A DNA stretch of 15,784 nt, taken from contig CAMPGV010000017.1 in NCBI GenBank assembly GCA_946885745.1, positions 1 to 15,784 on the forward strand. Reading direction: 5' to 3'. The notes beneath the pieces are model-generated. The model saw only the letters and a program-made list of their open reading frames with translations. It was not told where the DNA came from and searched no databases. Origin of the DNA: an uncultured Candidatus Saccharibacteria bacterium. Lineage in GTDB: Bacteria; Patescibacteria; Saccharimonadia; Saccharimonadales; JAEWBQ01. Each line of letters begins with the position of its first letter. Position 1 is the first letter of the stretch. The position numbers were made by a program, and so were the translations under genes. This document shows, piece after piece, positions 249-15,552 of this stretch.

Positions 249-830
249 ATGAAACGATACTTGCGAGGTTTCGTAGCAATTGTAGCAACATTAGCATTCA
301 TGGGTGGCGTAGCAAATGCGCAAGAAGGACCCGGGGATTGCTCGGGCGATGCCATCATTACTCACACAGGACCTGACTCAGTCAACAAGATTGAATGCGT
401 TAGCGCGCGTGACATTAAAGTCACCTGTAAAAATAATATTTACGTCGTCACCGATAACTCACAGTCAGCCGGTTCGGGCGACACAACAAATGACGGCAAC
501 ACAACCGGCGGTAGCGCTATCAGCGGCAACGCCACAAATGAGAACGGTACAATCGTTGAAATTGGCGCCAGCTGTGGCGAACAGCCCGCGGTAATTACCC
601 CAGAAAATCCAAAGCCAGGCATGGGTGCAGTCACACCGAGCTCTCAGCAGCCAAGTGGCGGTGGCGGTGCAGTTGCTCCAACCCAAGCGCCTGTCGAAAT
701 TACGACACTACCAGACACTAGCAGCAACCCAATTCTCGACGGCGCACTGATCGCTGGTTCGAGCCTAACTGGACTACTTATTGCCTCACAACTCGGCATA
801 GCAGCATATCGCCGCTTTGCATTGAGGTAA
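249..830 (+). CDS. Secreted protein with a sortase-type (LPDTS) C-terminal anchor
   Basis: A 193-residue exported protein, probably anchored to the surface by the sortase encoded next. The N-terminus is a signal peptide (charged MKRYLR, hydrophobic core 8-20, likely cleavage after ANA24). The mature part has four cysteines (31, 50, 60, 109), enough for two disulfides, and a Ser/Gly/Asn/Thr-rich stretch (70-99) with GNTTGGS and SGNATN units. A Pro/Gly linker follows (112-152). The C-terminus has the order of a sorting signal: LPDTS at 154-158, a hydrophobic segment 161-186, and a basic tail with RR at 188-189. The classical motif ends in Gly (LPXTG), so Ser at position five is a variant; without that cleavage the tail would act as a plain membrane anchor. 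I do not recognise a catalytic domain. Similar SGNAT-rich small exported proteins occur in candidate-phylum genomes as I recall them. Confidence 0.85.
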   Translation: MKRYLRGFVAIVATLAFMGGVANAQEGPGDCSGDAIITHTGPDSVNKIECVSARDIKVTCKNNIYVVTDNSQSAGSGDTTNDGNTTGGSAISGNATNENGTIVEIGASCGEQPAVITPENPKPGMGAVTPSSQQPSGGGGAVAPTQAPVEITTLPDTSSNPILDGALIAGSSLTGLLIASQLGIAAYRRFALR

Positions 831-839
831 GTCACCAAC

Positions 840-1457
840 ATGACCGCTCCGATATCATGGTCTCAACGACTACGCTTCTTCCTTACAACGGGAGTGCTCT
901 ATATCGGAGCGGTCAGCTTGCTGGGGTACATCGGGGTCCTCGCCTATGCACCCCAGCCAGTTAGTATCACCACCCCAACTATCACACAGTCGCATCCCAC
1001 AGCAACCGCACCAACAGCATCGACAGCTGCAGTTATCTACGGTAAGCCAGTCCGTCTTGTCGTGGCAGATGCGGGCATTGATCTTCCTATTGACGAGGGC
1101 TACTATGACGCAACGCTTGATACATGGACACTTAGCGACACCCGCTTGCAATACGCCATGATGACCATGCCAGCAAATAACCAATCGGGTAATACGTTTA
1201 TTTATGGCCACGGCACCCCCCAGGTGCTTGAGCCACTTGCAAAGGCGCCTCTCACCGATAGCTCGTTAGCGCAGGTATATACTGACAACGGCCATATTTT
1301 TACCTATTCTTTTCAATCATCACACAATTTTACACCTAGCGACACAGGTATTTTTAACTATAGTGGCCCGCCCATTCTAACTGTTCAAACCTGCACCGGC
1401 GCCGCTAGTGAGTGGCGTACAATGTTTACTTTTAGTTTTAAGGAAGTGGTTTCATAA
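840..1457 (+). CDS. Sortase (class E/F-like transpeptidase)
   Basis: A 205-residue membrane-anchored cysteine transpeptidase that should cleave the sorting signal of the preceding protein and attach it to the cell envelope. There is an N-terminal membrane segment (about 16-36), a Thr/Pro-rich linker (41-62), and a catalytic domain from about residue 69. Catalytic residues are all visible: His124 in FIYGHGT, Cys185 in LTVQTC, Arg193 in EWRTMF. Its length and single N-terminal membrane span suit a housekeeping or dedicated class E/F-type enzyme rather than a pilin sortase. The start codon lies 9 bases after the upstream stop, with GAGGT overlapping that stop, so the two genes are almost certainly co-translated. 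The substrate and enzyme side by side suggest a dedicated pair; the exact nucleophile acceptor cannot be read from sequence. Confidence 0.88.
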   Translation: MTAPISWSQRLRFFLTTGVLYIGAVSLLGYIGVLAYAPQPVSITTPTITQSHPTATAPTASTAAVIYGKPVRLVVADAGIDLPIDEGYYDATLDTWTLSDTRLQYAMMTMPANNQSGNTFIYGHGTPQVLEPLAKAPLTDSSLAQVYTDNGHIFTYSFQSSHNFTPSDTGIFNYSGPPILTVQTCTGAASEWRTMFTFSFKEVVS

Positions 1458-4321: not shown

Positions 4322-4990
4322 TTAAAGGAGCTCCACATTATCCTTGGCCCATGCCATGATCTCTTCGGTCACAACACGAGCTTCAATGGCTTCGTCGTCA
4401 GGTTCATCCCCGTGCCACCACTGATCCCAAAATACAGGCAGTGGATTCAACACGGCAAGGTTATCCATATGGCGCAGCTCGCCGTCAACAAACTGCTCGT
4501 TGCGCTCGACGTAGACCAATCGGTAACCAGACTTTTCAAGCGCCTTACGGCTACCTTCATTTCCCTGAATCACCGCCGACATAATACGGTGGAGACCCAT
4601 GTGCTGAAAAGCATACCACGTGCGAGCCTTGTGGATTGAGCTAGCGATCCCTTTTCTCCAATACTGAGTATTGAAAATCAGAGAGCCGCTAGTAGCCTGG
4701 TGAATATGCTTGCGCTGAATATCCATCAGTGCTGTGTCACCGATCAATATCCGCTCATCACCCTTGACCACCCAGATACCCCAGTTAAGACGTGTTTTAT
4801 CAGCACGTACTTTATCAAACCATTCCAGTTCATCTTCCAGAACCGGAGCAGCCTGGCGCGAAAGATATCGCGTAATGCTCGCCTGCTGCAACCCCGGCTT
4901 AACGAATTCCTCCATTGATTCCTTCGTCAGCGGAGCAAGCTCAATATCAAGCTCACCAACCCTTACCTTCATGATGGGTCCGAATGCCAC
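4322..4990 (-). CDS. GNAT-family acetyltransferase (RimJ/RimL-like)
   Basis: A 222-residue N-acetyltransferase using acetyl-CoA. The core runs from VRVGELDIELAPLT at the start through a strand near LIGDTALMDI to the acetyl-CoA loop YWRKGIASSIHKA (110-122), then GNEGSRKALEKSGY (143-156), the typical end of the RimJ/RimL-type fold. The substrate (a ribosomal protein, another protein N-terminus or a small amine) is not determined. I chose the GTG at 4990 because AAAGGAG lies 6 bases before it. An in-frame ATG at 5047 would add 19 basic residues, but its nearest GGAGG is 13 bases away inside a terminator, and the added codons contain a perfect hairpin. Expression is probably governed by the long structured leader upstream. 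Confidence 0.82.
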   Translation of the reverse strand: MAFGPIMKVRVGELDIELAPLTKESMEEFVKPGLQQASITRYLSRQAAPVLEDELEWFDKVRADKTRLNWGIWVVKGDERILIGDTALMDIQRKHIHQATSGSLIFNTQYWRKGIASSIHKARTWYAFQHMGLHRIMSAVIQGNEGSRKALEKSGYRLVYVERNEQFVDGELRHMDNLAVLNPLPVFWDQWWHGDEPDDEAIEARVVTEEIMAWAKDNVELL

Positions 4991-5010
4991 GGATCTCTCC
5001 TTTCTTTTCT

Positions 5011-5029
5011 CGGTCTCTTTCTGAGACCG
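5011..5029 (-). promoter_or_regulatory. Hairpin just before the acetyltransferase start
   Basis: CGGTCTC and GAGACCG form a perfect 7-bp stem around a 5-base loop, 12 bases upstream of the AAAGGAG ribosome binding site. It lacks a U-run, so it is not a terminator; it may position or shield the translation start. Confidence 0.4.
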
Positions 5030-5054
5030 GATGAGCCCCCTAGCCATTGGTATG

Positions 5055-5081
5055 AAAAAACCTCCGACCGGGAGGCTTATC
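5055..5081 (-). terminator. Intrinsic terminator inside the acetyltransferase leader
   Basis: On the minus strand CCTCC, loop CGGTC, GGAGG and then six U's (5055-5060). The stem is short but all but one pair is G-C. It lies upstream of the coding start, so it can act as an attenuator. Its 5' arm shares two bases with the GATAAGCC element (5074-5081), which pairs with GGCTTATC at 5113-5120. Confidence 0.65.
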
Positions 5082-5101
5082 TAGTACCACAAATGATGTA
5101 T

Positions 5102-5194
5102 TTACGAGAGAAGATAAGCCATACCACGATTAATCACGCCTGCTGTAGCGCTGACGAGATTCATCTTAATGTGGTATGAAGCAAATCTGTTCAT
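5102..5194 (-). CDS. Possible 30-codon leader peptide
   Basis: An ATG at 5194 opens a 30-codon frame (MNRFASYHIK… to …MAYLLS, TAA at 5102-5104) covering stems 1:2 and 2:3 and stopping before the terminator. The -10 box TATAAA (5201-5206) would place the transcript start essentially at this ATG, so it would be leaderless. The same frame extends upstream to an ATG at 5245 (47 codons), also without a ribosome binding site. It has no recognised homologue, and chance occurrence is quite possible. Confidence 0.25.
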   Translation of the reverse strand: MNRFASYHIKMNLVSATAGVINRGMAYLLS

Positions 5195-5200
5195 ACGATA

Positions 5201-5229
5201 TTTATAACATAACACAACCATTGCAACAA
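5201..5229 (-). promoter_or_regulatory. Promoter for the leftward leader and acetyltransferase
   Basis: Minus-strand TGTTATAAA is an extended -10 (TG, one base, TATAAA at 5201-5206). The best -35 at 17-base spacing is TTGTTG (5224-5229), 3/6. It is divergent from the much stronger rightward promoter at 5239-5267. Confidence 0.4.
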
Positions 5230-5238
5230 TAGCTCTGC

Positions 5239-5267
5239 TTGACATTTTGTTTATTTTTATTTATAAT
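5239..5267 (+). promoter_or_regulatory. Perfect consensus promoter of the small gene
   Basis: TTGACA (5239-5244), exactly 17 bases, TATAAT (5262-5267), inside an A/T-only-rich tract. This is a full match to the vegetative sigma consensus, so high constitutive transcription is expected unless repressed. The start would be near 5274. Confidence 0.88.
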
Positions 5268-5280
5268 ATTATTAATTCCT

Positions 5281-5347
5281 ATCGGATGGTAGGTGGTCGA
5301 TTGGGCAACTGATCGAATAGCGTCCGATGCCGAGGACAGATCGGCAT
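5281..5347 (+). promoter_or_regulatory. Structured 5' UTR of the small gene
   Basis: The roughly 90-base leader holds ATCGGA (5281-5286) pairing with TCCGAT (5323-5328), an inner TCGAT/ATCGA stem (5297-5301 with 5312-5316), and a 7-bp hairpin ATGCCGA/TCGGCAT (5327-5333 with 5341-5347) just before the ribosome binding site. The outer stem and the last hairpin compete for 5327-5328. I see no known riboswitch signature. Confidence 0.4.
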
Positions 5348-5365
5348 AGCAGAAAGGTGAGTCGG

Positions 5366-5650
5366 ATGACTAACCGAAAAGATATCCTTGACGGGCCAAG
5401 CCTTGCAGAGCTTGCAGACGCATGGAAGTATGTAGGCCGACGCGGCTTCACAGTGCACTTCCACACAGGTCATATCACAGGACCCCTTGACTGGAATTCG
5501 GACCCAAGAACTACCGAAGTAGTAGTCCTTGGGCTTCGACACATACCAGAAGAGGAGGATACAATCTGGTTTGAAGCTCGTGTTATCGACGGCGGCACCC
5601 TCGTACAGGGTCGCTACAAGCCAGGTCGCCGCAAGGGCTACTTCGAGTAG
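5366..5650 (+). CDS. Conserved-looking small protein of unknown function
   Basis: A 94-residue soluble protein with no signal peptide or membrane span. The N-terminal part is helical and acidic (DILDGPSLAELADAW, 6-20). It is followed by a basic/aromatic stretch with the His-rich FTVHFHTGHITG (28-39), a beta-rich middle (TTEVVVLGL, 48-56), and a basic Gly/Arg/Lys C-terminus (GRYKPGRRKGYFE). I do not recognise a family. The start at 5366 is chosen because AAAGGTG lies 6-7 bases before it; the upstream in-frame ATG at 5327 has no ribosome binding site and lies within a UTR hairpin. A perfect consensus promoter and a tight terminator make it a stand-alone, probably highly expressed gene. The basic tail would suit nucleic-acid or ribosome binding, but that is a guess. 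Confidence 0.75.
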   Translation: MTNRKDILDGPSLAELADAWKYVGRRGFTVHFHTGHITGPLDWNSDPRTTEVVVLGLRHIPEEEDTIWFEARVIDGGTLVQGRYKPGRRKGYFE

Positions 5651-10519: not shown

Positions 10520-11932
10520 CTAATACCGAGTCCCCCAGCCCCGATACCGCAGCTTCGATGGCGTCAGGACTTCAATCGATTGTCGTGATAAGAGACGGTT
10601 GCCAGACGCGCTGACCGTAATAGCCTCGACCGACTGGCGCGACAGGAGACGATTACCCATCGTACTGGCTGCAATTACCTCAAGAGATTGCCGAGACAAC
10701 GAGCGCGTTATTGCAACCGGCGATGATGCAATAACAAGCAGTGTATATTGATAGCCGCTACCACCACCAGGAGCATTGAAAGCATAGGACGCATTCACGA
10801 TGTCATAGCCAAGCGCTTCGTGTGCGATAACTCCTGAGAAGGCTGTCGTACCACCCGAGCCACTAGCATCTACCGTCGTGCCAGGCACGACAGGTACGTT
10901 ATTTGCAGCACGGTTGGCACCGAGAGCTAATACCCAGTCCCCGTTACTTGCCGACCCTAGATCATTTGGCTGATACGACGCGCCAGAGCTCGACCAGTCA
11001 TGACTCATGCGCCGTATGCCATACCCGGGTGTTACAAGCGCAATCAGCTGTAGCACACCCGACTGATTACCGCTCCACGTCACTGTAACGACTGAACCAG
11101 CGTCACCTGCGCTAGCGGTCTTTGCAGCCACAAACGAGCCGACATTCATACCCGAATTAGCGTACAGCGAACTCCAGCCACTCGGCATCGTTGGCGCCCA
11201 AGCGCCCACTGCCTGCAAGATAAGATAATCGCCTTCTTGAATTGTTGCTGGAATAGTAATCGTTGTACTCACCCCATTAACAAACACCTGCGCCTTATCA
11301 CGAAGCGAGATAGCACTCACGGCTGCCGGCGGCGTCTCGCCGGCAATAACCAGTGTCGAATATGAGTAACCCTGTGTGGAACCGCCAGATGGAGAAGTAA
11401 AGCTCGCCTGCAAGCCGGGCGTATCAGCAGCAAGTACTTCATGAGCAATTACGCCACCCATATTAGTTGAGCCACTACCCGATATGTCGACCGATCCACG
11501 ACTAATCGCAGGTGCACCACCGCCACTTCGGTTGGCGCCAAGGTATAGCACCATATCACCATTTAGCGCATTTAATGCACCTGGCGATGCATTACCGCCG
11601 CTACTAGCCCATAAATTCGCAACCCCCCGGACCCCAAGACTACCCGTGACGGCAATCATCGTCATCACCGCCTGACTGGCACCTGACCATGATATCGATA
11701 CGGATGTACCAGCATCGCCGCTTCCCGCCGTTTTGGTTGCCACAAAACACCCGACATTCGTACCGGACCGTGTATAGTATTTTGTCCAGCCAGCAGGCAA
11801 TGACGGCGTAAAGTAACCCGCGACATGCAGCACCAATAAGTCACCCGTTTGCGCTGCAACCGGAATAGTGATCGAACTAGTCGTGCCGCTTGTGAGAAAA
11901 GCCTGTGCCGTTGCGCGAATCGTTGCTGCCAT
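10520..11932 (-). CDS. Phage-tail-like protein with two tandem copies of one domain and C-terminal 18-residue repeats
   Basis: A 470-residue protein with no signal peptide or membrane span. Two homologous domains of about 195 residues (about 1-198 and 206-403) share a run of landmarks: IPVAAQTGDLLVL / IPATIQEGDYLIL, LPAGWTKYY / MPSGWSSLY, GSGDAGTSVSISWSG / SAGDAGSVVTVTWSG, LYLGANR / LALGANR, GGVIAHEVL / SGVIAHEAL. This GWT-type beta domain resembles minor tail proteins of actinobacterial phages. The C-terminus has three LSRQS-h-E repeats of 18 residues (from about 409) and ends VLTPSKLRYRGWGTRY, a tag shared with the 82-residue protein. It starts 8 bases after the preceding stop without a clear ribosome binding site, so it is likely translated by coupling. 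Role inferred: outer tail, baseplate or adhesion component. Confidence 0.7.
   Translation of the reverse strand: MAATIRATAQAFLTSGTTSSITIPVAAQTGDLLVLHVAGYFTPSLPAGWTKYYTRSGTNVGCFVATKTAGSGDAGTSVSISWSGASQAVMTMIAVTGSLGVRGVANLWASSGGNASPGALNALNGDMVLYLGANRSGGGAPAISRGSVDISGSGSTNMGGVIAHEVLAADTPGLQASFTSPSGGSTQGYSYSTLVIAGETPPAAVSAISLRDKAQVFVNGVSTTITIPATIQEGDYLILQAVGAWAPTMPSGWSSLYANSGMNVGSFVAAKTASAGDAGSVVTVTWSGNQSGVLQLIALVTPGYGIRRMSHDWSSSGASYQPNDLGSASNGDWVLALGANRAANNVPVVPGTTVDASGSGGTTAFSGVIAHEALGYDIVNASYAFNAPGGGSGYQYTLLVIASSPVAITRSLSRQSLEVIAASTMGNRLLSRQSVEAITVSASGNRLLSRQSIEVLTPSKLRYRGWGTRY
10523..10708 (-). repeat. 18-residue (54-bp) repeats and GWG tag at the end of the 470-residue protein
   Basis: Three units with the core (R)xLSRQS-h-E-h begin at about residues 409, 427 and 445. 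The second and third both begin NRLLSRQS. The last unit runs into VLTPSKL-x-Y-R-GWG. The same period and ending appear in the 82-residue protein at 14261-14473. Confidence 0.75.
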
Positions 11933-11940
11933 CGTCGCTA

Positions 11941-12897
11941 CTACGAGGTCTGTACACCGAATTCAGCTGTATTAACATCAGTGGGTGTCCACGGTGCATT
12001 ATCACTCGGTCGTGTCTGATATATATCTGTTGCAGCTACCCATGACGCTGATAGCATTTGCGGCTGAGCATTTGCATAATCAGTTGAGCCCATACGCACA
12101 ACTGTAGCAAGGCCGGCTGCAACTGGAGCGTCCTTTGAGGCGTAGTTTGTTACCGCAACCGCATGAACCGATGACGTATTAGCCGTAAGCTGCTGGTATT
12201 TGTAACTATCTTTTACACCGGCGGCACCAGAGAAAACGTAGGATGTTGTGTCTGGGGTCGCTTCATTCACACGATTGTAATGAGTTGTCCCCGAATCAGG
12301 TGACATTGCAAGATTTGCTCCGTCCGATGAGGGCAAAAGGGTCTGTACTCGTACATCGCCGAGATAATTATTATTGGTCGCCCCGGTTGAGTCCAGCACA
12401 TACAGATCATCTATCCAGTATTGATTCCCGCTAGGATAATCAAAGGCAAGTGACGATACCGATGCTGTCGTCGGTACATTACCGTTTACGCGCAAGACAC
12501 CGTCGACTCGTATTTCACATGCTCCCGTGCCTGGCGTATATTTCAATTCAATATAACGCCACACACCAGCCGCCGACCAGGCTGGGCCGGTGGAAATAGC
12601 TATCTGCGCATTATTGTCGCTGCGGTAGAGTGCAATATACCCACCGGACACTAGACCAACACGTGCCATGCCACTCGTCATCAAGGAAACCGTTGTCGCT
12701 GTTTGCGATGAGCTAATAGCAACACCGATCACGATGGTATTGGTCAGCGCGCCTGGGTAGGACCGTGTCATCACTCCCCACTGATTGAGCGCCGCTCTTC
12801 CGCCAAACCGGCCAGTCACAGTCCCGCCACCGAAGTTATTCCAGCCCTTAGCCGTCGTCAGGCCATCATCGAAGCCTTCCATGAATATCAGTGCCAT
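11941..12897 (-). CDS. Lectin-fold-like phage tail protein, paralogue 2
   Basis: A 318-residue protein with no export signal. It opens MALIFMEGFDDG. A jelly-roll-like region follows with YIALYRSDNN, WRYIELKYTPGTGACEIRVDG (Trp/Glu/Asp pattern of concanavalin-like domains) and YWIDDLYVLDSTG. Next come LGDVRVQTLLPSSDG and a C-terminal part ending in NAPWT…EFGVQTS. The arrangement IDDLY-x-D-x-TG-NN-LGDVRVQTLLP is a pattern I recognise from prophage minor tail proteins. It is a paralogue of the 356-residue protein at 14482-15552. Its ATG follows the fibre gene's TAA with no gap, and GAGGTGGT precedes it, so the two are coupled. It probably binds carbohydrate on a virion or tail-like particle. No active-site motif is visible. 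Confidence 0.7.
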   Translation of the reverse strand: MALIFMEGFDDGLTTAKGWNNFGGGTVTGRFGGRAALNQWGVMTRSYPGALTNTIVIGVAISSSQTATTVSLMTSGMARVGLVSGGYIALYRSDNNAQIAISTGPAWSAAGVWRYIELKYTPGTGACEIRVDGVLRVNGNVPTTASVSSLAFDYPSGNQYWIDDLYVLDSTGATNNNYLGDVRVQTLLPSSDGANLAMSPDSGTTHYNRVNEATPDTTSYVFSGAAGVKDSYKYQQLTANTSSVHAVAVTNYASKDAPVAAGLATVVRMGSTDYANAQPQMLSASWVAATDIYQTRPSDNAPWTPTDVNTAEFGVQTS

Positions 12898-14163
12898 TTA
12901 CACCACCTCTAACTGAACTGTTAAATCGCTACCAGGAATTATTGACCCTACCTGGGCGACGTCAACGGTTACATATGCCCCTGCCGCAACCGACGTAATG
13001 TTCATATTTGTCACATACCCAGAAGTCATTGACCCAGCAGAAATCGTAGGGCGATTTGCCTGAGTAGTGAAAATAGTCGTACCATTTACTTTAATATCGA
13101 CAATCAAAGACGCTCCGGTTGGTGCCGTTCCGACAGACGCACGAACCCCATTGATAGTCCAGGCACTTGAGCGGTTGTTATAAAGTCGATGCGTGCCCGT
13201 TTCAACAGCAATGCTCCCGGTCGAAGAAAAGGTATGCATCTGTATCGTGGCCGGTAGTTGGGTAGTCGGCACTTTGCCGCCAGTGTCTAGCGAAGCGTAG
13301 CCGTTCGCCACACCTTTGTTCACTGCCTGCTCTGCACCCGTAATACGACTGTCATTACCCTCTGCGACCGTACCAGCAGCTGTACCAAAGTTTACCGCCA
13401 ATGTTCGGTTGGCAGAAAGATCTCCCCCGCCGGTCAAGCCAGCGCCTGTAGAAATTGTGGTCGCTGTGGCTGCTTTATTAATAAGACCCGGAACTGTCGG
13501 CGAGGCGGCCGTGCCACCAAGGTCACCGGAGAGCTGAATAAGTCCTCTTGTCGTTGTCGTAGCATCCGGCGGCGCTACCGCTGGCGGTAGCTGCGAAGCA
13601 GGCACGAGGCCATCGCTGCCAAGAGATGCATAGCCATTAGCCGCACCCTTATTCGCAATTTGCTCAGCACCCGCAATACGCGCGTCATTTCCTGCAGCTA
13701 CTGTTCCATCGGTTGTACCAAAATTAACAGCCAAAGTCCGATTGGCGCTCAGATTACCGCCGCCAGTCAAGCCAGCTCCAGCGCTAATTGTCATTGCCGC
13801 CGCAGCTTTATCGGCAAGACCTGGAACCGTCGGCGCAGTGGCGGTGCCACCCAAATCACCAGAGAGCTGAATAAGCCCCTTGGTAGCTGTAGAGGCGTCT
13901 GGTGGCGAAGTTATCGATGGCAACTGCGAGCTAGTCACGAGGCCGTCAGTCCCTAGAGTTGCAACACCATTGGGCTGCGCTTTTTCATTTGCTTGGATAT
14001 AAGTTTGAGCTAACTTACTGGCCATAATAGAGCCGTTAGGAATGGCCTTGATGACAGAACCGTCTTTTAATTCCCCGTCCCCGCTAAGCGACACACTCAA
14101 ATAGTCGTTGAGGATATCCCCCCATTGCCCTTGATCTGAACCAGGTATCGGTAATCGTGCCAT
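12898..14163 (-). CDS. Tail-fibre protein with 111-residue tandem repeats and receptor-tip-like domain
   Basis: A 421-residue fibre-like protein, without signal peptide, very rich in Gly, Ala, Thr and Ser. The N-terminus RLPIPGSDQGQWGDILNDYL (3-22) is a base module common in phage-like fibres. Two exactly 111-residue repeats (65-175, 176-286), each with GLIQLSGDLGGTA, PTVPGL, GLTGGG, SANRTLAVNFGT and GNDxRI, form the shaft, followed by the start of a third (287-308). The C-terminal domain (309-421) contains SVGTAPTGASLIVDIKVNG, TTIFTTQANRPTI and VDVAQVGS, a tip domain seen in phage tail proteins. It probably trimerises and contacts a receptor. A TATACT box (14205-14210) precedes it, but no good ribosome binding site does. 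A bacterial surface-adhesion role is possible only if another route exports it. Confidence 0.78.
   Translation of the reverse strand: MARLPIPGSDQGQWGDILNDYLSVSLSGDGELKDGSVIKAIPNGSIMASKLAQTYIQANEKAQPNGVATLGTDGLVTSSQLPSITSPPDASTATKGLIQLSGDLGGTATAPTVPGLADKAAAAMTISAGAGLTGGGNLSANRTLAVNFGTTDGTVAAGNDARIAGAEQIANKGAANGYASLGSDGLVPASQLPPAVAPPDATTTTRGLIQLSGDLGGTAASPTVPGLINKAATATTISTGAGLTGGGDLSANRTLAVNFGTAAGTVAEGNDSRITGAEQAVNKGVANGYASLDTGGKVPTTQLPATIQMHTFSSTGSIAVETGTHRLYNNRSSAWTINGVRASVGTAPTGASLIVDIKVNGTTIFTTQANRPTISAGSMTSGYVTNMNITSVAAGAYVTVDVAQVGSIIPGSDLTVQLEVV
13306..13638 (-). repeat. Fibre repeat, second 333-bp unit
   Basis: Encodes residues 176-286, from NGYASLGSDG to NKGVA. It aligns without gaps to the first unit (65-175), so it is an in-frame 333-bp duplication. 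Many codons differ, so the duplication is not recent. Confidence 0.85.
13639..13971 (-). repeat. Fibre repeat, first 333-bp unit
   Basis: Encodes residues 65-175, from NGVATLGTDG to NKGAA, equal in length to the unit that follows it. Shared blocks are GLIQLSGDLGGTA, PTVPGL, SANRTLAVNFGT and GLTGGG. Confidence 0.85.
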
Positions 14164-14204
14164 TATTTTGCTTTTGCGGCGACCTATTTATTCTGATTGT
14201 GCTT

Positions 14205-14233
14205 AGTATACCACCACTACTAACTGAGTTCTA
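14205..14233 (-). promoter_or_regulatory. Possible promoter inside the tail-fibre cassette
   Basis: Minus-strand TAGAAC (14228-14233), 17 bases, TATACT (14205-14210), in the 73-base gap before the fibre gene. The -10 is good and the -35 poor (3/6). The GGTATACT context recurs before the ABC ATPase gene. Confidence 0.35.
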
Positions 14234-14236
14234 CTG

Positions 14237-14485
14237 CTAAATTGGCATTCCCCATCCCTTAAAACCGAGCTTTGAGGGGGTCAGCACTTCGACATACAGT
14301 GACGCAACTTGCCGGGGAGGCGCCCCATTCAATGCCGCCACTTCCACATACATACTTCCAATACGTCGCGGAGCATCAGTCGAACCTGTAGCAGCCTCAA
14401 TGTAGAGCGTATTTAATCGACGAGATGGATCTGCCGTTGCACTGGCCACCTCAACGTACTCAGTCAAAGCACGTACATCTGTCAT
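14237..14485 (-). CDS. 82-residue repeat protein sharing the GWG C-terminal tag
   Basis: Nearly the whole protein is four imperfect 17-18-residue units, each starting with Arg and carrying (Y/L)(V/I)E(V/A): RALTEYVEVA (5), RRLNTLYIEAA (22), RRIGSMYVEVA (40), RQVASLYVEVL (58). It ends VLTPSKLGFKGWGMPI, almost the same as the end of the 470-residue protein in this cassette. The repeat style (short beta strand ending in VEVL, then a Pro/Gly/Ala turn) resembles low-complexity ends of phage minor tail proteins. It could form a stacked beta structure or dock to a shared partner. It overlaps the preceding gene by ATGA, which supports a real, coupled gene despite its size. Function unknown. Confidence 0.7.
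   Translation of the reverse strand: MTDVRALTEYVEVASATADPSRRLNTLYIEAATGSTDAPRRIGSMYVEVAALNGAPPRQVASLYVEVLTPSKLGFKGWGMPI
14261..14473 (-). repeat. 18-residue repeat array of the 82-residue protein
   Basis: Four units begin at residues 5, 22, 40 and 58 with the pattern R-h-x-x-h-(Y/L)-(V/I)-E-(V/A), period 17-18 residues (about 54 bp). They run into the VLTPSKL tag. Confidence 0.75.
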
Positions 14486-15552
14486 GAAGCAACTTCAACT
14501 CCTGCTTCCAAGCCATTGATACTTCCTGTTGTCCAAGCTACCGATGTAGATGGATCGGTCTCATGAATTTGCGTGTAAGGCGTAGCGCTCGTGCCGAGTG
14601 AGCGCGTTGCATCATAGTAAACAGTTCCGCCCGACTTCAGTGCCACTCTTGCATTTGCCGTACCCGCATCAGACTTCTGCATGTGCGCCACAGTCTGCAC
14701 GCCTTTAACAGAAGTGGTTCCTGCGGTCAGATCGGATAGTCCGTAAAGATCGAGTTGGCCAACCGTGGATGAGGCATTGTAGGTGGTGTTATTAAATGGC
14801 ACTTCACTGACATTTGCCCAGTTATTAGCCGAACCAGTCGGAGCAAACTGAGTAGAAGAACCGGCTGCATTCGGCAACATAGTCTGCACTCGCACGTCAC
14901 CGAGAAAAGTATTGTTTGTCGTACCCGTTGCATCACATATATAAAGATCGTCTATACTGATCGCGCAGGAGCCACCCGTATACCTACCGGTACGGAACCG
15001 AACAGCGTCAATATTCATACTTGTGCCACCATTACGGGTATCTCCAGTAAAGTCAATCACCACGACACCGTCCACCTTAACGATTAAACGGCCGGTAGTG
15101 TCATGAATGATCGCATACACTTCCATATAATGCCAGTTCCCGTCCAGGACCCCGGCAGAAGATGCGGCAATTTGCGTACCGCTTGGATTATTGACGTCCC
15201 CCGTGCTAGGATTGCCACGATACACGGCAATTGTATTAGTACTCAGTCGACGCAGATAGACATGGCCATTCACTCCTGCATCTGTGTAAATACCGAATAA
15301 ATTTGCACTCGGATCGTTGCCGGCACCCTCGGCTCCTACCTGGATAGCGGCGCCAATATAAATAGAACTAGAAGCCGCAAAGCCGCGCGTGACATAAGAT
15401 GACGCGGCAGCGTTTGTGGTACTGATTGTAAGTGCCTTTCCAGCACCAAATCGAGTCATCGCGCCGTACGTAAATTCATTTGCCGACCCGCTTTGCACCC
15501 ATCGAAGTGCACTGTCCTGCGCGTCAAACCCGTCCATGTAGAGTAGCGCCAT
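14482..15552 (-). CDS. Lectin-fold-like phage tail protein, paralogue 1
   Basis: A 356-residue protein, first gene of the cassette, without signal peptide or membrane span. It starts MALLYMDGFDAQD, matching the start of the 318-residue paralogue. The middle has the beta-sandwich markers HVYLRRLSTNTIAVYRG, WHYMEVYAIIHDTTGRLIVK and VDGVVVIDF, then IDDLYICDATGTTNN, LGDVRVQTMLP and a C-terminal region ending VAWTTGSINGLEAGVEVAS. This is the layout of concanavalin-like domains in prophage tail proteins, so carbohydrate binding is likely. GGAGGGG lies 4 bases before the ATG. A promoter lies just after the grpE stop. The stop overlaps the start of the 82-residue gene. Confidence 0.72.
   Translation of the reverse strand: MALLYMDGFDAQDSALRWVQSGSANEFTYGAMTRFGAGKALTISTTNAAASSYVTRGFAASSSIYIGAAIQVGAEGAGNDPSANLFGIYTDAGVNGHVYLRRLSTNTIAVYRGNPSTGDVNNPSGTQIAASSAGVLDGNWHYMEVYAIIHDTTGRLIVKVDGVVVIDFTGDTRNGGTSMNIDAVRFRTGRYTGGSCAISIDDLYICDATGTTNNTFLGDVRVQTMLPNAAGSSTQFAPTGSANNWANVSEVPFNNTTYNASSTVGQLDLYGLSDLTAGTTSVKGVQTVAHMQKSDAGTANARVALKSGGTVYYDATRSLGTSATPYTQIHETDPSTSVAWTTGSINGLEAGVEVAS

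What the first reader, a model, noticed from the sequence alone, without database searches (positions are those of the whole stretch)
5054..5200. Attenuator-like leader RNA of unrecognised class before an acetyltransferase gene
Seen: a 7-bp hairpin (GTATGAA/TTCATAC) whose 3' arm is also the start of a 13-bp helix with 5120-5133; a third stem (GGCTTATC/GATAAGCC) that shares two bases with a terminator carrying six U's; and a further CATACC copy after the U-run that can re-pair with the third segment. All lie upstream of the coding start. Known: chained exclusive stems plus an intrinsic terminator are the hallmark of attenuators and riboswitches. Inference: it senses a metabolite, an RNA/protein ligand or translation of the small ORF within it. 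I could match it to no known riboswitch.
Basis: partly seen in the sequence, partly recalled or inferred. Interest (0 to 1): 0.75.

Follow-up and report, generated by a model that had tools for sequence, protein, structure and literature searches.

The report
Translation-sensing RNA switch in Saccharibacteria
The stretch is the start of a messenger RNA in an uncultured Saccharibacteria-like bacterium that very probably lets the next gene (an acetyltransferase) be read only when a ribosome gets stuck on a tiny upstream gene, and similar switches sit before related acetyltransferases and efflux-type transporters in other genomes of the same phylum.

Summary
On the minus strand a weak predicted promoter (5229-5201) starts a transcript at or near the ATG of a 30-codon uORF (5194-5102). 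Its 5' part (S1) pairs with its last codons (S2); S2 also pairs with S3 (antiterminator), and S3 is part of a terminator ending in six U. The acetyltransferase (GNAT) probably starts at GTG 4990. The architecture recurs upstream of 29 of 35 GNAT loci examined (window included). A covariance model then found it before further GNATs and before MFS transporters, in Saccharibacteria and three other classes of the phylum: 57 leaders accepted by eye, 37 GNAT and 20 MFS. Antiterminator pairs covary, three pairings are specific to their own leader, and the uORF runs to S2. Modelled folding gives read-through for a ribosome at codons 4-13 and termination with none or one at the stop. Best reading: a ribosome-mediated transcription attenuator responding to translation inhibition, in the manner of vmlR, with a leaderless uORF and an extra post-terminator element. 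No Rfam match in the window or in 20 other leader loci. The inducer is inferred, not shown.

The parts
5201..5229 (-). predicted promoter: -35 TTGTTG (5229-5224, 3 of 6 consensus), 17 bp, -10 TATAAA (5206-5201, 5 of 6)
   Evidence: sequence and my own scoring script: -10 ends 6 nt before the uORF ATG, as for the best-scoring box in 20 of 29 leaders. Not listed by the stricter scan; not mapped experimentally.
5102..5194 (-). leaderless (predicted) uORF, 30 codons, MNRFASYHIKMNLVSATAGVINRGMAYLLS, stop TAA 5104-5102; an inner in-frame ATG lies at 5164
   Evidence: frame of the promoter-proximal ATG compared over 47 leaders
5171..5188 (-). S1: uORF codons 3-8, pairs with S2 (anti-antiterminator)
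   Evidence: fold; own-versus-other duplex test z -11.1 for 29 leaders, z -15.4 for 47
5134..5154 (-). apical hairpin inside the S1:S2 stem; its 3' arm carries the GGC (Gly) codon 19
   Evidence: fold; Gly at codons 17-21 in 44 of 55 leaders
5112..5127 (-). S2: GTGGTATG (pairs S1) overlapping GGCTTATCT (pairs S3); encodes the end of the uORF
5071..5082 (-). S3: AGATAAGCCTCC, partner of S2 (antiterminator), of the terminator 3' arm and of S5
5055..5075 (-). intrinsic terminator CCTCC-CGGTC-GGAGG + T6
   Evidence: sequence; my script finds a terminator-like hairpin 18-35 nt after the uORF stop in 29 of 29 GNAT leaders; not listed by the scan
5029..5040 (-). S5: GGGGGCTCATCC, post-terminator segment complementary to S3
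   Evidence: 88.3% of cells paired in 20 leaders; z -10.7, 47 leaders
5012..5028 (-). hairpin h6 GGTCTC-AGAAA-GAGACC next to S5
   Evidence: 6 pairs, 99.2% of cells paired, 3 pairs with changes on both sides
4997..5003 (-). Shine-Dalgarno AAAGGAG of the acetyltransferase gene
   Evidence: sequence
4322..4990 (-). GNAT acetyltransferase (Acetyltransf_3), start GTG 4990, VAFGPIM...
   Evidence: Pfam PF13302 E 5.4e-17; conserved MAFGPxM start; best of five models pLDDT 86, pTM 0.84 (the other four 71, 66, 48, 41), best PDB matches lasso-peptide acetyltransferase 9iy3 and SpeG, RimJ at rank 47

Best explanation
The region is a ribosome-mediated transcription attenuator. Transcription starts at or near the ATG of a leaderless uORF. 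With no ribosome S1 pairs with S2, S3 is left for the terminator and transcription stops at about 5055. A ribosome that finishes the uORF sits on S2, and the terminator forms too. A ribosome slowed or stalled in the first dozen or so codons covers S1 but leaves S2 free; S2 pairs with S3, the terminator cannot form, and the acetyltransferase is transcribed. Because similar leaders stand before GNATs and MFS transporters and show no run of control codons, the most likely input is slowed translation in general, above all by ribosome-targeting antibiotics. Shown here by comparison: the uORF, the pairings, their covariation, the terminator, the gene families. Modelled: the switch by ribosome position. 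Inferred: that the transcript starts at the ATG, that the uORF is translated, that drugs are the inducer, and that S5 with h6 acts after read-through by holding S3 (CCUCC, complementary to Shine-Dalgarno sequences) away from the gene's ribosome-binding site.
For: Leader present in 29 of 35 GNAT loci. The frame of the promoter-proximal ATG stays open over 24-55 codons in 47 of 47 leaders (chance product 10^-27 before allowing for relatedness); frame +1 is open in 17 of 47, +2 in 6 of 47. The best partner of S3, sought over the whole stretch from the uORF ATG to before S3, ends -9 to +12 nt from the stop codon in 50 of 55 leaders, a window that is on average 19% of the stretch. S2:S3 on 35 leaders, alignment not fitted to that helix: 96.5% of cells paired, 7 of 9 pairs with changes on both sides, 0 of 500 shuffles as high for cells paired, double changes and covariation score. 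Own-versus-other duplex energies on 47 leaders: 2:3 z -10.8, 3:5 z -10.7, 1:2 z -15.4; on the 15 MFS leaders alone -5.2, -6.1, -6.8; 0 of 20000 permutations in each. Folding model of the window: P(terminator) 0.94 without ribosome, 0.01-0.08 with a ribosome at codons 4-13, 0.95 at the stop; among 55 leaders 45 shift the predicted way by more than 0.05 and 0 the other way; switch size 0.38 against 0.01 for 550 shuffled uORFs. The 28 leaders found through the RNA model and accepted by eye precede a GNAT (8 of 8 by Pfam) or an MFS transporter (20; 19 scanned, 19 MFS_1; L079 partly masked, not scanned).
Against: No transcript, ribosome-profiling or induction data. In the window the predicted -35 box is poor (3 of 6), and the stricter scan lists neither this promoter nor this terminator. 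The folding model is equilibrium and not strong for all: 28 of 55 leaders exceed a switch of 0.3, 10 show no clear change, L017 predicts termination (0.94) with a ribosome at codon 4, and in the window codon 20 gives 0.03 although codons 14-18 give 0.94. 6 of 35 GNAT loci lack the leader. Peptides are only weakly constrained (pN/pS 0.51-0.80 in 4 close pairs), as expected if only translation matters but not positive proof of coding. Gly at codons 17-21 in 44 of 55 leaders is not explained by the model. S3:S5 has one position mismatched in 12 of 20 leaders. The RNA models also match the opposite strand of leaders (22 of 66 matches, down to E 4.5e-8), because the element is nearly palindromic, so their E-values flatter. 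GNAT substrate unknown; NCBIfam matches of the transporters to tetracycline-efflux families are far below the cut-offs.
Confidence: 0.8

Rival explanations
1. Same attenuator, but the input is shortage of a particular amino acid (Gly or Met) rather than drugs: ribosomes pause at control codons in the uORF.
For: Gly 70 against 41 expected and Met 31 against 12 expected in the mid uORF of 29 leaders; Gly at codons 17-21 in 44 of 55 leaders, 56 of those 60 codons GGC or GGT; in the window a ribosome at codon 20 gives read-through in the model.
Against: No runs of control codons seen; 11 of 55 leaders lack the Gly; in the window a ribosome at codons 14-18 gives termination in the model; by eye the GG lies in the 3' arm of an apical hairpin, which can explain it, and in L092 the hairpin persists without a Gly codon; GNAT and MFS genes do not make Gly or Met.
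Confidence: 0.1
2. Metabolite- or protein-binding riboswitch whose ORF is incidental.
For: Strong conserved stems and a terminator.
Against: The ORF runs to S2 in each leader examined and S2 lies at its stop in 50 of 55; variable length (24-55 codons); no Rfam match in the window at E <= 1 or in 20 other leader loci at gathering scores; no conserved unpaired core noticed in the alignments.
Confidence: 0.06
3. The inducer is drug-stalled ribosomes but the main control is translational (S5/h6 and the gene's ribosome-binding site), with the terminator secondary.
For: S3:S5 is specific and covaries; the vmlR leader combines both layers (PMC9226507, abstract and passages).
Against: S5/h6 seem to be missing in L025 and L049, where the terminator ends 28-34 nt before the gene; no direct evidence that S5 or h6 hides the ribosome-binding site.
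Confidence: 0.15
4. Chance fold plus the terminator of an upstream gene.
For: Terminator-like sites are common: 3 found against 1.5 expected in this stretch, and this one is not among the 3.
Against: Conservation, covariation and leader-specific pairing.
Confidence: 0.01

Closest known systems
Bacillus subtilis vmlR leader (PMC9226507; abstract and passages seen)
   Same: uORF inside an anti-antiterminator stem, antiterminator, intrinsic terminator before a resistance gene; drug-stalled ribosome on the uORF frees the antiterminator; an extra hairpin after the terminator.
   Different: vmlR uORF has its own Shine-Dalgarno sequence, here the uORF is leaderless by prediction; vmlR is an ABCF protein in Bacilli, here GNAT or MFS in Saccharibacteria and other classes of its phylum; the vmlR extra hairpin hides the ribosome-binding site, which is not shown here; S3:S5 pairing not described in the passages seen.
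E. coli toiL uORF upstream of topAI-yjhQ (PMC12121999; abstract, outline and one section seen)
   Same: One uORF reports several classes of ribosome-targeting antibiotics; stalling along a base-paired ORF relieves repression.
   Different: toiL works on a ribosome-binding site and Rho-dependent termination, not an intrinsic terminator.
Sinorhizobium meliloti trpL attenuator (PMC7298713; passages seen)
   Same: Leader-peptide ORF whose transcript starts with the ATG; exclusive antiterminator and terminator.
   Different: Trp control codons and an amino-acid biosynthesis operon; here W occurs in 1 of 29 peptides.
Actinobacterial whiB7 uORF leader (named in the section read; otherwise recalled)
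   Same: uORF-linked sensing of several classes of translation inhibitors.
   Different: Different gene and phylum; no common origin tested.
Tn916 tet(M), ermK and cmlA leaders (recalled, no call)
   Same: Leader-peptide attenuation of resistance genes, including an MFS pump, as recalled.
   Different: Not compared here.

Membership tests
ribosome-mediated transcription attenuator | short ORF in the leader overlapping the switching stems | tested here: met
   frame open to S2 in 47 of 47; S2 at the stop in 50 of 55
ribosome-mediated transcription attenuator | mutually exclusive antiterminator and intrinsic terminator | tested here: met
   covariation of S2:S3; terminator-like hairpin in 29 of 29 GNAT leaders by my script; the scan does not list the window's
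ribosome-mediated transcription attenuator | ribosome position decides the fold | tested here: inconclusive
   equilibrium model only: 45 of 55 as predicted, 0 opposite, 10 neutral
ribosome-mediated transcription attenuator | uORF is translated and read-through changes with it | not testable with these tools
   needs reporter or ribosome profiling
amino-acid biosynthesis leader-peptide attenuator | run of control codons for the product amino acid | tested here: not met
   no runs seen; genes are GNAT or MFS
antibiotic-inducible resistance leader (vmlR, erm type) | downstream gene is a resistance determinant | tested here: inconclusive
   MFS_1 and GNAT families; only sub-threshold matches to tetracycline efflux and AAC(6') models (five proteins)
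antibiotic-inducible resistance leader (vmlR, erm type) | induced by ribosome-targeting drugs | not testable with these tools
   no expression data
antibiotic-inducible resistance leader (vmlR, erm type) | uORF with its own Shine-Dalgarno sequence | tested here: not met
   best -10 box ends 6-11 nt before the ATG in 29 of 29 GNAT leaders, so no room for one; MFS leaders were looked at by eye only
Rfam riboswitch or T-box | match to a curated covariance model | tested here: not met
   0 at E <= 1 in the window; 0 at gathering scores in 20 other leader loci

The most novel reading that the evidence does not exclude
A single ancient sensor, present in at least four classes of the Patescibacteria (CPR) phylum, couples ribosome stalling on a leaderless (70S-initiated) uORF to transcription of unrelated protection genes (GNAT acetyltransferases and MFS pumps), with a second, post-termination switch (S3:S5 plus h6). 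It would be a general translation-stress module of bacteria with very small genomes, and the genes behind it would be uncharacterised resistance genes marked by their leader.
Probability: 0.4. Interest if true: 0.82.

Novelty: new variant of a known kind. Interest (0 to 1): 0.7.

Why it matters
I found no description of a leader-peptide attenuator in Saccharibacteria or other Patescibacteria in an open-access full-text library (searches naming these bacteria; searches on attenuators and uORFs; subscription papers and preprints are not held), and Rfam has no match for the window or 20 other leader loci. If right, it shows how these tiny-genome bacteria can sense translation stress without a protein regulator, gives a covariance model that points to unrecognised drug-response genes, and offers a natural leaderless uORF in which initiation itself could be the sensor.

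Tried and rejected
Rfam search of the window and of 20 other leader loci: nothing. Viral-contig scan for the GNAT: 55 pattern matches, no relative. Amino-acid control codons: no runs; Gly and Met enrichment noted but not accepted as control. Peptide conservation as the cause: pN/pS 0.51-0.80 in 4 pairs, so the peptide itself is little constrained. RNA-model matches rejected by eye for lack of a uORF, antiterminator and terminator before a gene: L090, L091, L093-L101 (11 loci, E 0.003-0.084), L112 (E 4.3e-4), L116 (E 0.004); this sorting by eye is a weakness, and accepted leaders L092 (E 0.018), L109 (E 0.0098) and L113 (E 0.001) lie in the same range. Rows dropped before counts: L040 (only 21 nt upstream); L001-L013 and L015 as duplicates of whole-genome loci; weaker GNAT hits (L041-L045, L055, L056 and hits without a locus) were not taken into the upstream comparison, though two of those genomes (L041, L042) gave L084 and L078 through the RNA model. 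L025, L034 and L049 are counted as leaders from their uORF and terminator but are not matched by R1. The uORF start was chosen by eye among ATGs near the promoter. In one search the S3 window of L047 and L052 was mis-anchored, S2 was sought only near the stop (repeats this over the whole uORF), and the overlap guard for 1:2 lets the shortest uORF (L049) touch by a few bases; the overlap was a few bases for L049 and L052. L114 and L115 were added after the 55-leader calculations. Substrate of the GNAT: fold matches do not decide it. The genome search scored only part of the candidates per genome with the RNA models (8 to 150), so its tallies are lower bounds; a paper listed mentions Patescibacteria only in a figure legend on proteome statistics (passages seen).

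Full report
What was checked. The finding lies on the minus strand. A simple consensus scan lists neither the terminator nor the leader's promoter: A residues before the stem extend it into the U-run, and the -35 box TTGTTG matches 3 of 6. Rfam gives nothing for the window at E <= 1. The relatives of the acetyltransferase point to a Saccharibacterium: two named ones are Saccharibacteria or Saccharimonadales, and the 15 loci bear Saccharibacteria, Saccharimonadia or Microsaccharimonas titles. No whole genome is held for the window.

Anatomy in the window. A predicted promoter TTGTTG-17-TATAAA ends 6 nt before an ATG (5194), so the transcript should begin at about that ATG. The uORF has 30 codons and stops at 5102. 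S1 (5188-5171) pairs with S2 (5127-5112); the S2 part GGCTTATCT pairs with S3 AGATAAGCC (5082-5074); S3 runs into the terminator 5' arm (CCTCC), followed by GGAGG and six T. After the terminator S5 (5040-5029) can pair with S3, and a hairpin h6 (5028-5012) follows. The acetyltransferase very probably starts at GTG 4990, since homologues start MAFGPxM, not at ATG 5047.

Relatives of the gene. In 394 genomes of one Saccharibacteria family, 26 have the gene at E <= 1e-15; 5 of 13 genomes of a second family have a distant one at E <= 1e-10. Of 36 loci taken for upstream comparison one was cut too short (L040); of the other 35, window included, 29 have the leader and 6 (L026, L027, L028, L029, L031, L054) do not. 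In the 29, the uORF has 24-44 codons, and my script finds a terminator-like hairpin 18-35 nt after its stop. The best-scoring -10 box ends 6 nt before the ATG in 20 of 29 and 7-11 nt in the other 9, so the uORF is leaderless or nearly so; the usual distance from -10 box to start site is general knowledge, not measured here.

Covariation and specificity. On an alignment of 20 leaders the S2:S3 and h6 helices have 98.7% of cells paired, 6 of 15 pairs with changes on both sides, and 0 of 500 shuffles as high for cells paired, double changes and covariation score; the count of further pair types was not unusual (154 of 500 shuffles as high). S3:S5 has 88.3% paired and 4 of 12 pairs with double changes (17 of 500 shuffles as high), with one position mismatched in 12 of 20 leaders. 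On 35 leaders, in an alignment fitted to S3:S5 and h6 but not to S2:S3, S2:S3 has 96.5% paired and 7 of 9 pairs with double changes. A separate test asks whether each leader's segments pair better with each other than with those of other leaders: 2:3, 3:5 and 1:2 exceed 20000 of 20000 permutations for 29 leaders, for 47 leaders and for the 15 MFS leaders alone. Relatedness among leaders is not removed in these tests, but similar leaders make own and other more alike.

Other genes with the leader. The covariance model R1 was searched in 392 genomes of the class; 45 have a match at E <= 0.1, of which I accept 36 and reject 9 by eye. Besides the known GNATs, leaders stand before another GNAT homologue (L072), two further GNATs (L078, L084) and 15 MFS transporters. 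Among 53 loci searched again with R1, 44 of 47 leaders match on the sense strand (misses L025, L034, L049) and 0 of 6 loci without leader; 22 further matches lie on the opposite strand of leaders, as the element is nearly palindromic, which also means that E-values flatter. 20 of the 47 built the model, so 24 of the 27 others match. Model R2 in 286 genomes of the phylum gives 10 genomes at E <= 0.01, among them new GNAT loci L102, L103, L105 and MFS loci L107, L108, L109. A class of 45 held genomes, none of them listed in the first class, has 7 with a match, of which L102, L103, L105, L111 (GNAT), L108 and L113 (MFS) are accepted and L112 rejected. In a third class 4 of 85 genomes match: L114 (GNAT), L115 and L109 (MFS) accepted, L116 rejected. 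In a fourth class 1 of 8 matches: L107, MFS. In total 57 leaders accepted by eye: 37 GNAT (window included), 20 MFS. The 28 found through the RNA model precede a GNAT (8; 8 of 8 scanned are Acetyltransf_3, E 1.9e-15 or better) or an MFS transporter (20; 19 scanned, 19 MFS_1, E 3e-13 or better; L079 is partly masked and was not scanned). NCBIfam matches of five of these proteins to TetA(P), Tet(40), HP1165, AAC(6') and the like are far below the cut-offs, so 'resistance gene' is an inference from family and leader. Rfam gives no match at gathering scores in 20 of the leader loci.

The uORF. The frame of the promoter-proximal ATG is open over 24-55 codons in 47 of 47 leaders; the chance product under a first-order Markov model is 10^-27 before allowing for relatedness, and frames +1 and +2 are open in 17 and 6 of 47. 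The best partner of S3 over the whole stretch from the ATG to before S3 ends -9 to +12 nt from the stop codon in 50 of 55 leaders (2 to 9 nt in 42), against an average share of 19% of the stretch. The peptide is little conserved (pN/pS 0.51-0.80 in 4 close pairs). Mid-uORF residues are rich in Gly and Met and poor in Glu; Gly occurs at codons 17-21 in 44 of 55 leaders, while no 5-codon window starting before codon 9 has it in more than 3. By eye this Gly lies in the 3' arm of an apical hairpin, and L092 keeps the hairpin without the Gly; whether the RNA or the codon is selected is open.

The switch. Folding with a ribosome footprint of +/-15 nt: for the window P(terminator) is 0.94 without a ribosome, 0.71, 0.41 and 0.14 at codons 1, 2 and 3, 0.01-0.08 at codons 4-13, 0.94 at codons 14-18, 0.85 at 19, 0.03 at 20 and 0.90-0.96 from codon 21 to the stop. 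Over 55 leaders 45 have a higher P(terminator) at the stop than at codon 4 by more than 0.05, none the reverse. The mean switch is 0.38 against 0.01 for 550 uORF shuffles; above 0.3 are 28 of 55 real and 12 of 550 shuffled. L017 does not switch at codon 4. This is an equilibrium model and ignores the order of transcription.

Reading. The anatomy works like the vmlR attenuator of B. subtilis (anti-antiterminator with a uORF, antiterminator, terminator; PMC9226507, abstract and passages). The predicted early-stall window fits drugs that stop ribosomes at or soon after start codons, as described for tetracycline and retapamulin on toiL (PMC12121999, abstract, outline and one section), although at codon 1 itself the window's model gives only a partial shift (0.71). 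A leader-peptide ORF at the very 5' end of an attenuator transcript is known from S. meliloti trpL (PMC7298713, passages). What is new is the spread through Saccharibacteria and three more classes of its phylum, the sharing of one kind of leader by two unrelated gene families, the leaderless uORF in a resistance-type leader, and the S5/h6 element. A survey of resistance genes in CPR genomes (PMC8651080, passages) lists acetyltransferases and has no occurrence of 'attenuat', 'leader' or 'MFS' in its main text. The one paper that pairs Saccharibacteria with 'attenuator' in the library is a pig-gut study, seen in the listing only.

Limits. No transcript or induction data. Inducer and GNAT substrate are unknown. 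Class names of the other genomes are not given by the tool. Acceptance of weak model matches was by eye.

Noticed in passing
window 5239-5368 (+): Back-to-back with the attenuator promoter lies a perfect sigma-70 type promoter (TTGACA-17-TATAAT) and a leader before an orphan ORF of about 94-107 aa without Pfam or NCBIfam match; its fold is not clearly better than chance (z -1.9, 11 of 200 shuffles as good).
   Followed up: partly
window 10520-15552 (-): Row of repetitive Ser/Gly/Thr-rich ORFs (470, 318, 421, 82, 356 aa) with a recurring LSRQS motif and KLGFKGWG-like ends; perhaps surface or fibre proteins.
   Followed up: no
window 249-1457 (+): Small Thr/Gly-rich protein with an LPDTS-like tail directly before a sortase gene.
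   Followed up: no
uORF codons 17-21 in 44 of 55 leaders (window codon 19, 5140-5138): Sharp Gly (GGC/GGT) peak at a nearly fixed distance from the uORF start, with Gly nearly absent from codons 2-12; cause unresolved (apical hairpin or codon).
   Followed up: partly
L057 (G357:C1, about 975820-977304): Tandem pair of the GNAT genes; the RNA model finds no leader in this locus.
   Followed up: no
L027 upstream, about -331: A uORF-like start MSRFDSY... resembling leader peptides stands well upstream of a GNAT whose leader is otherwise missing; perhaps a remnant.
   Followed up: no
L025 and L049: Leaders with uORF and terminator but apparently no S5/h6: the terminator ends 28-34 nt before the gene, so S5/h6 look like an optional second layer.
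   Followed up: partly
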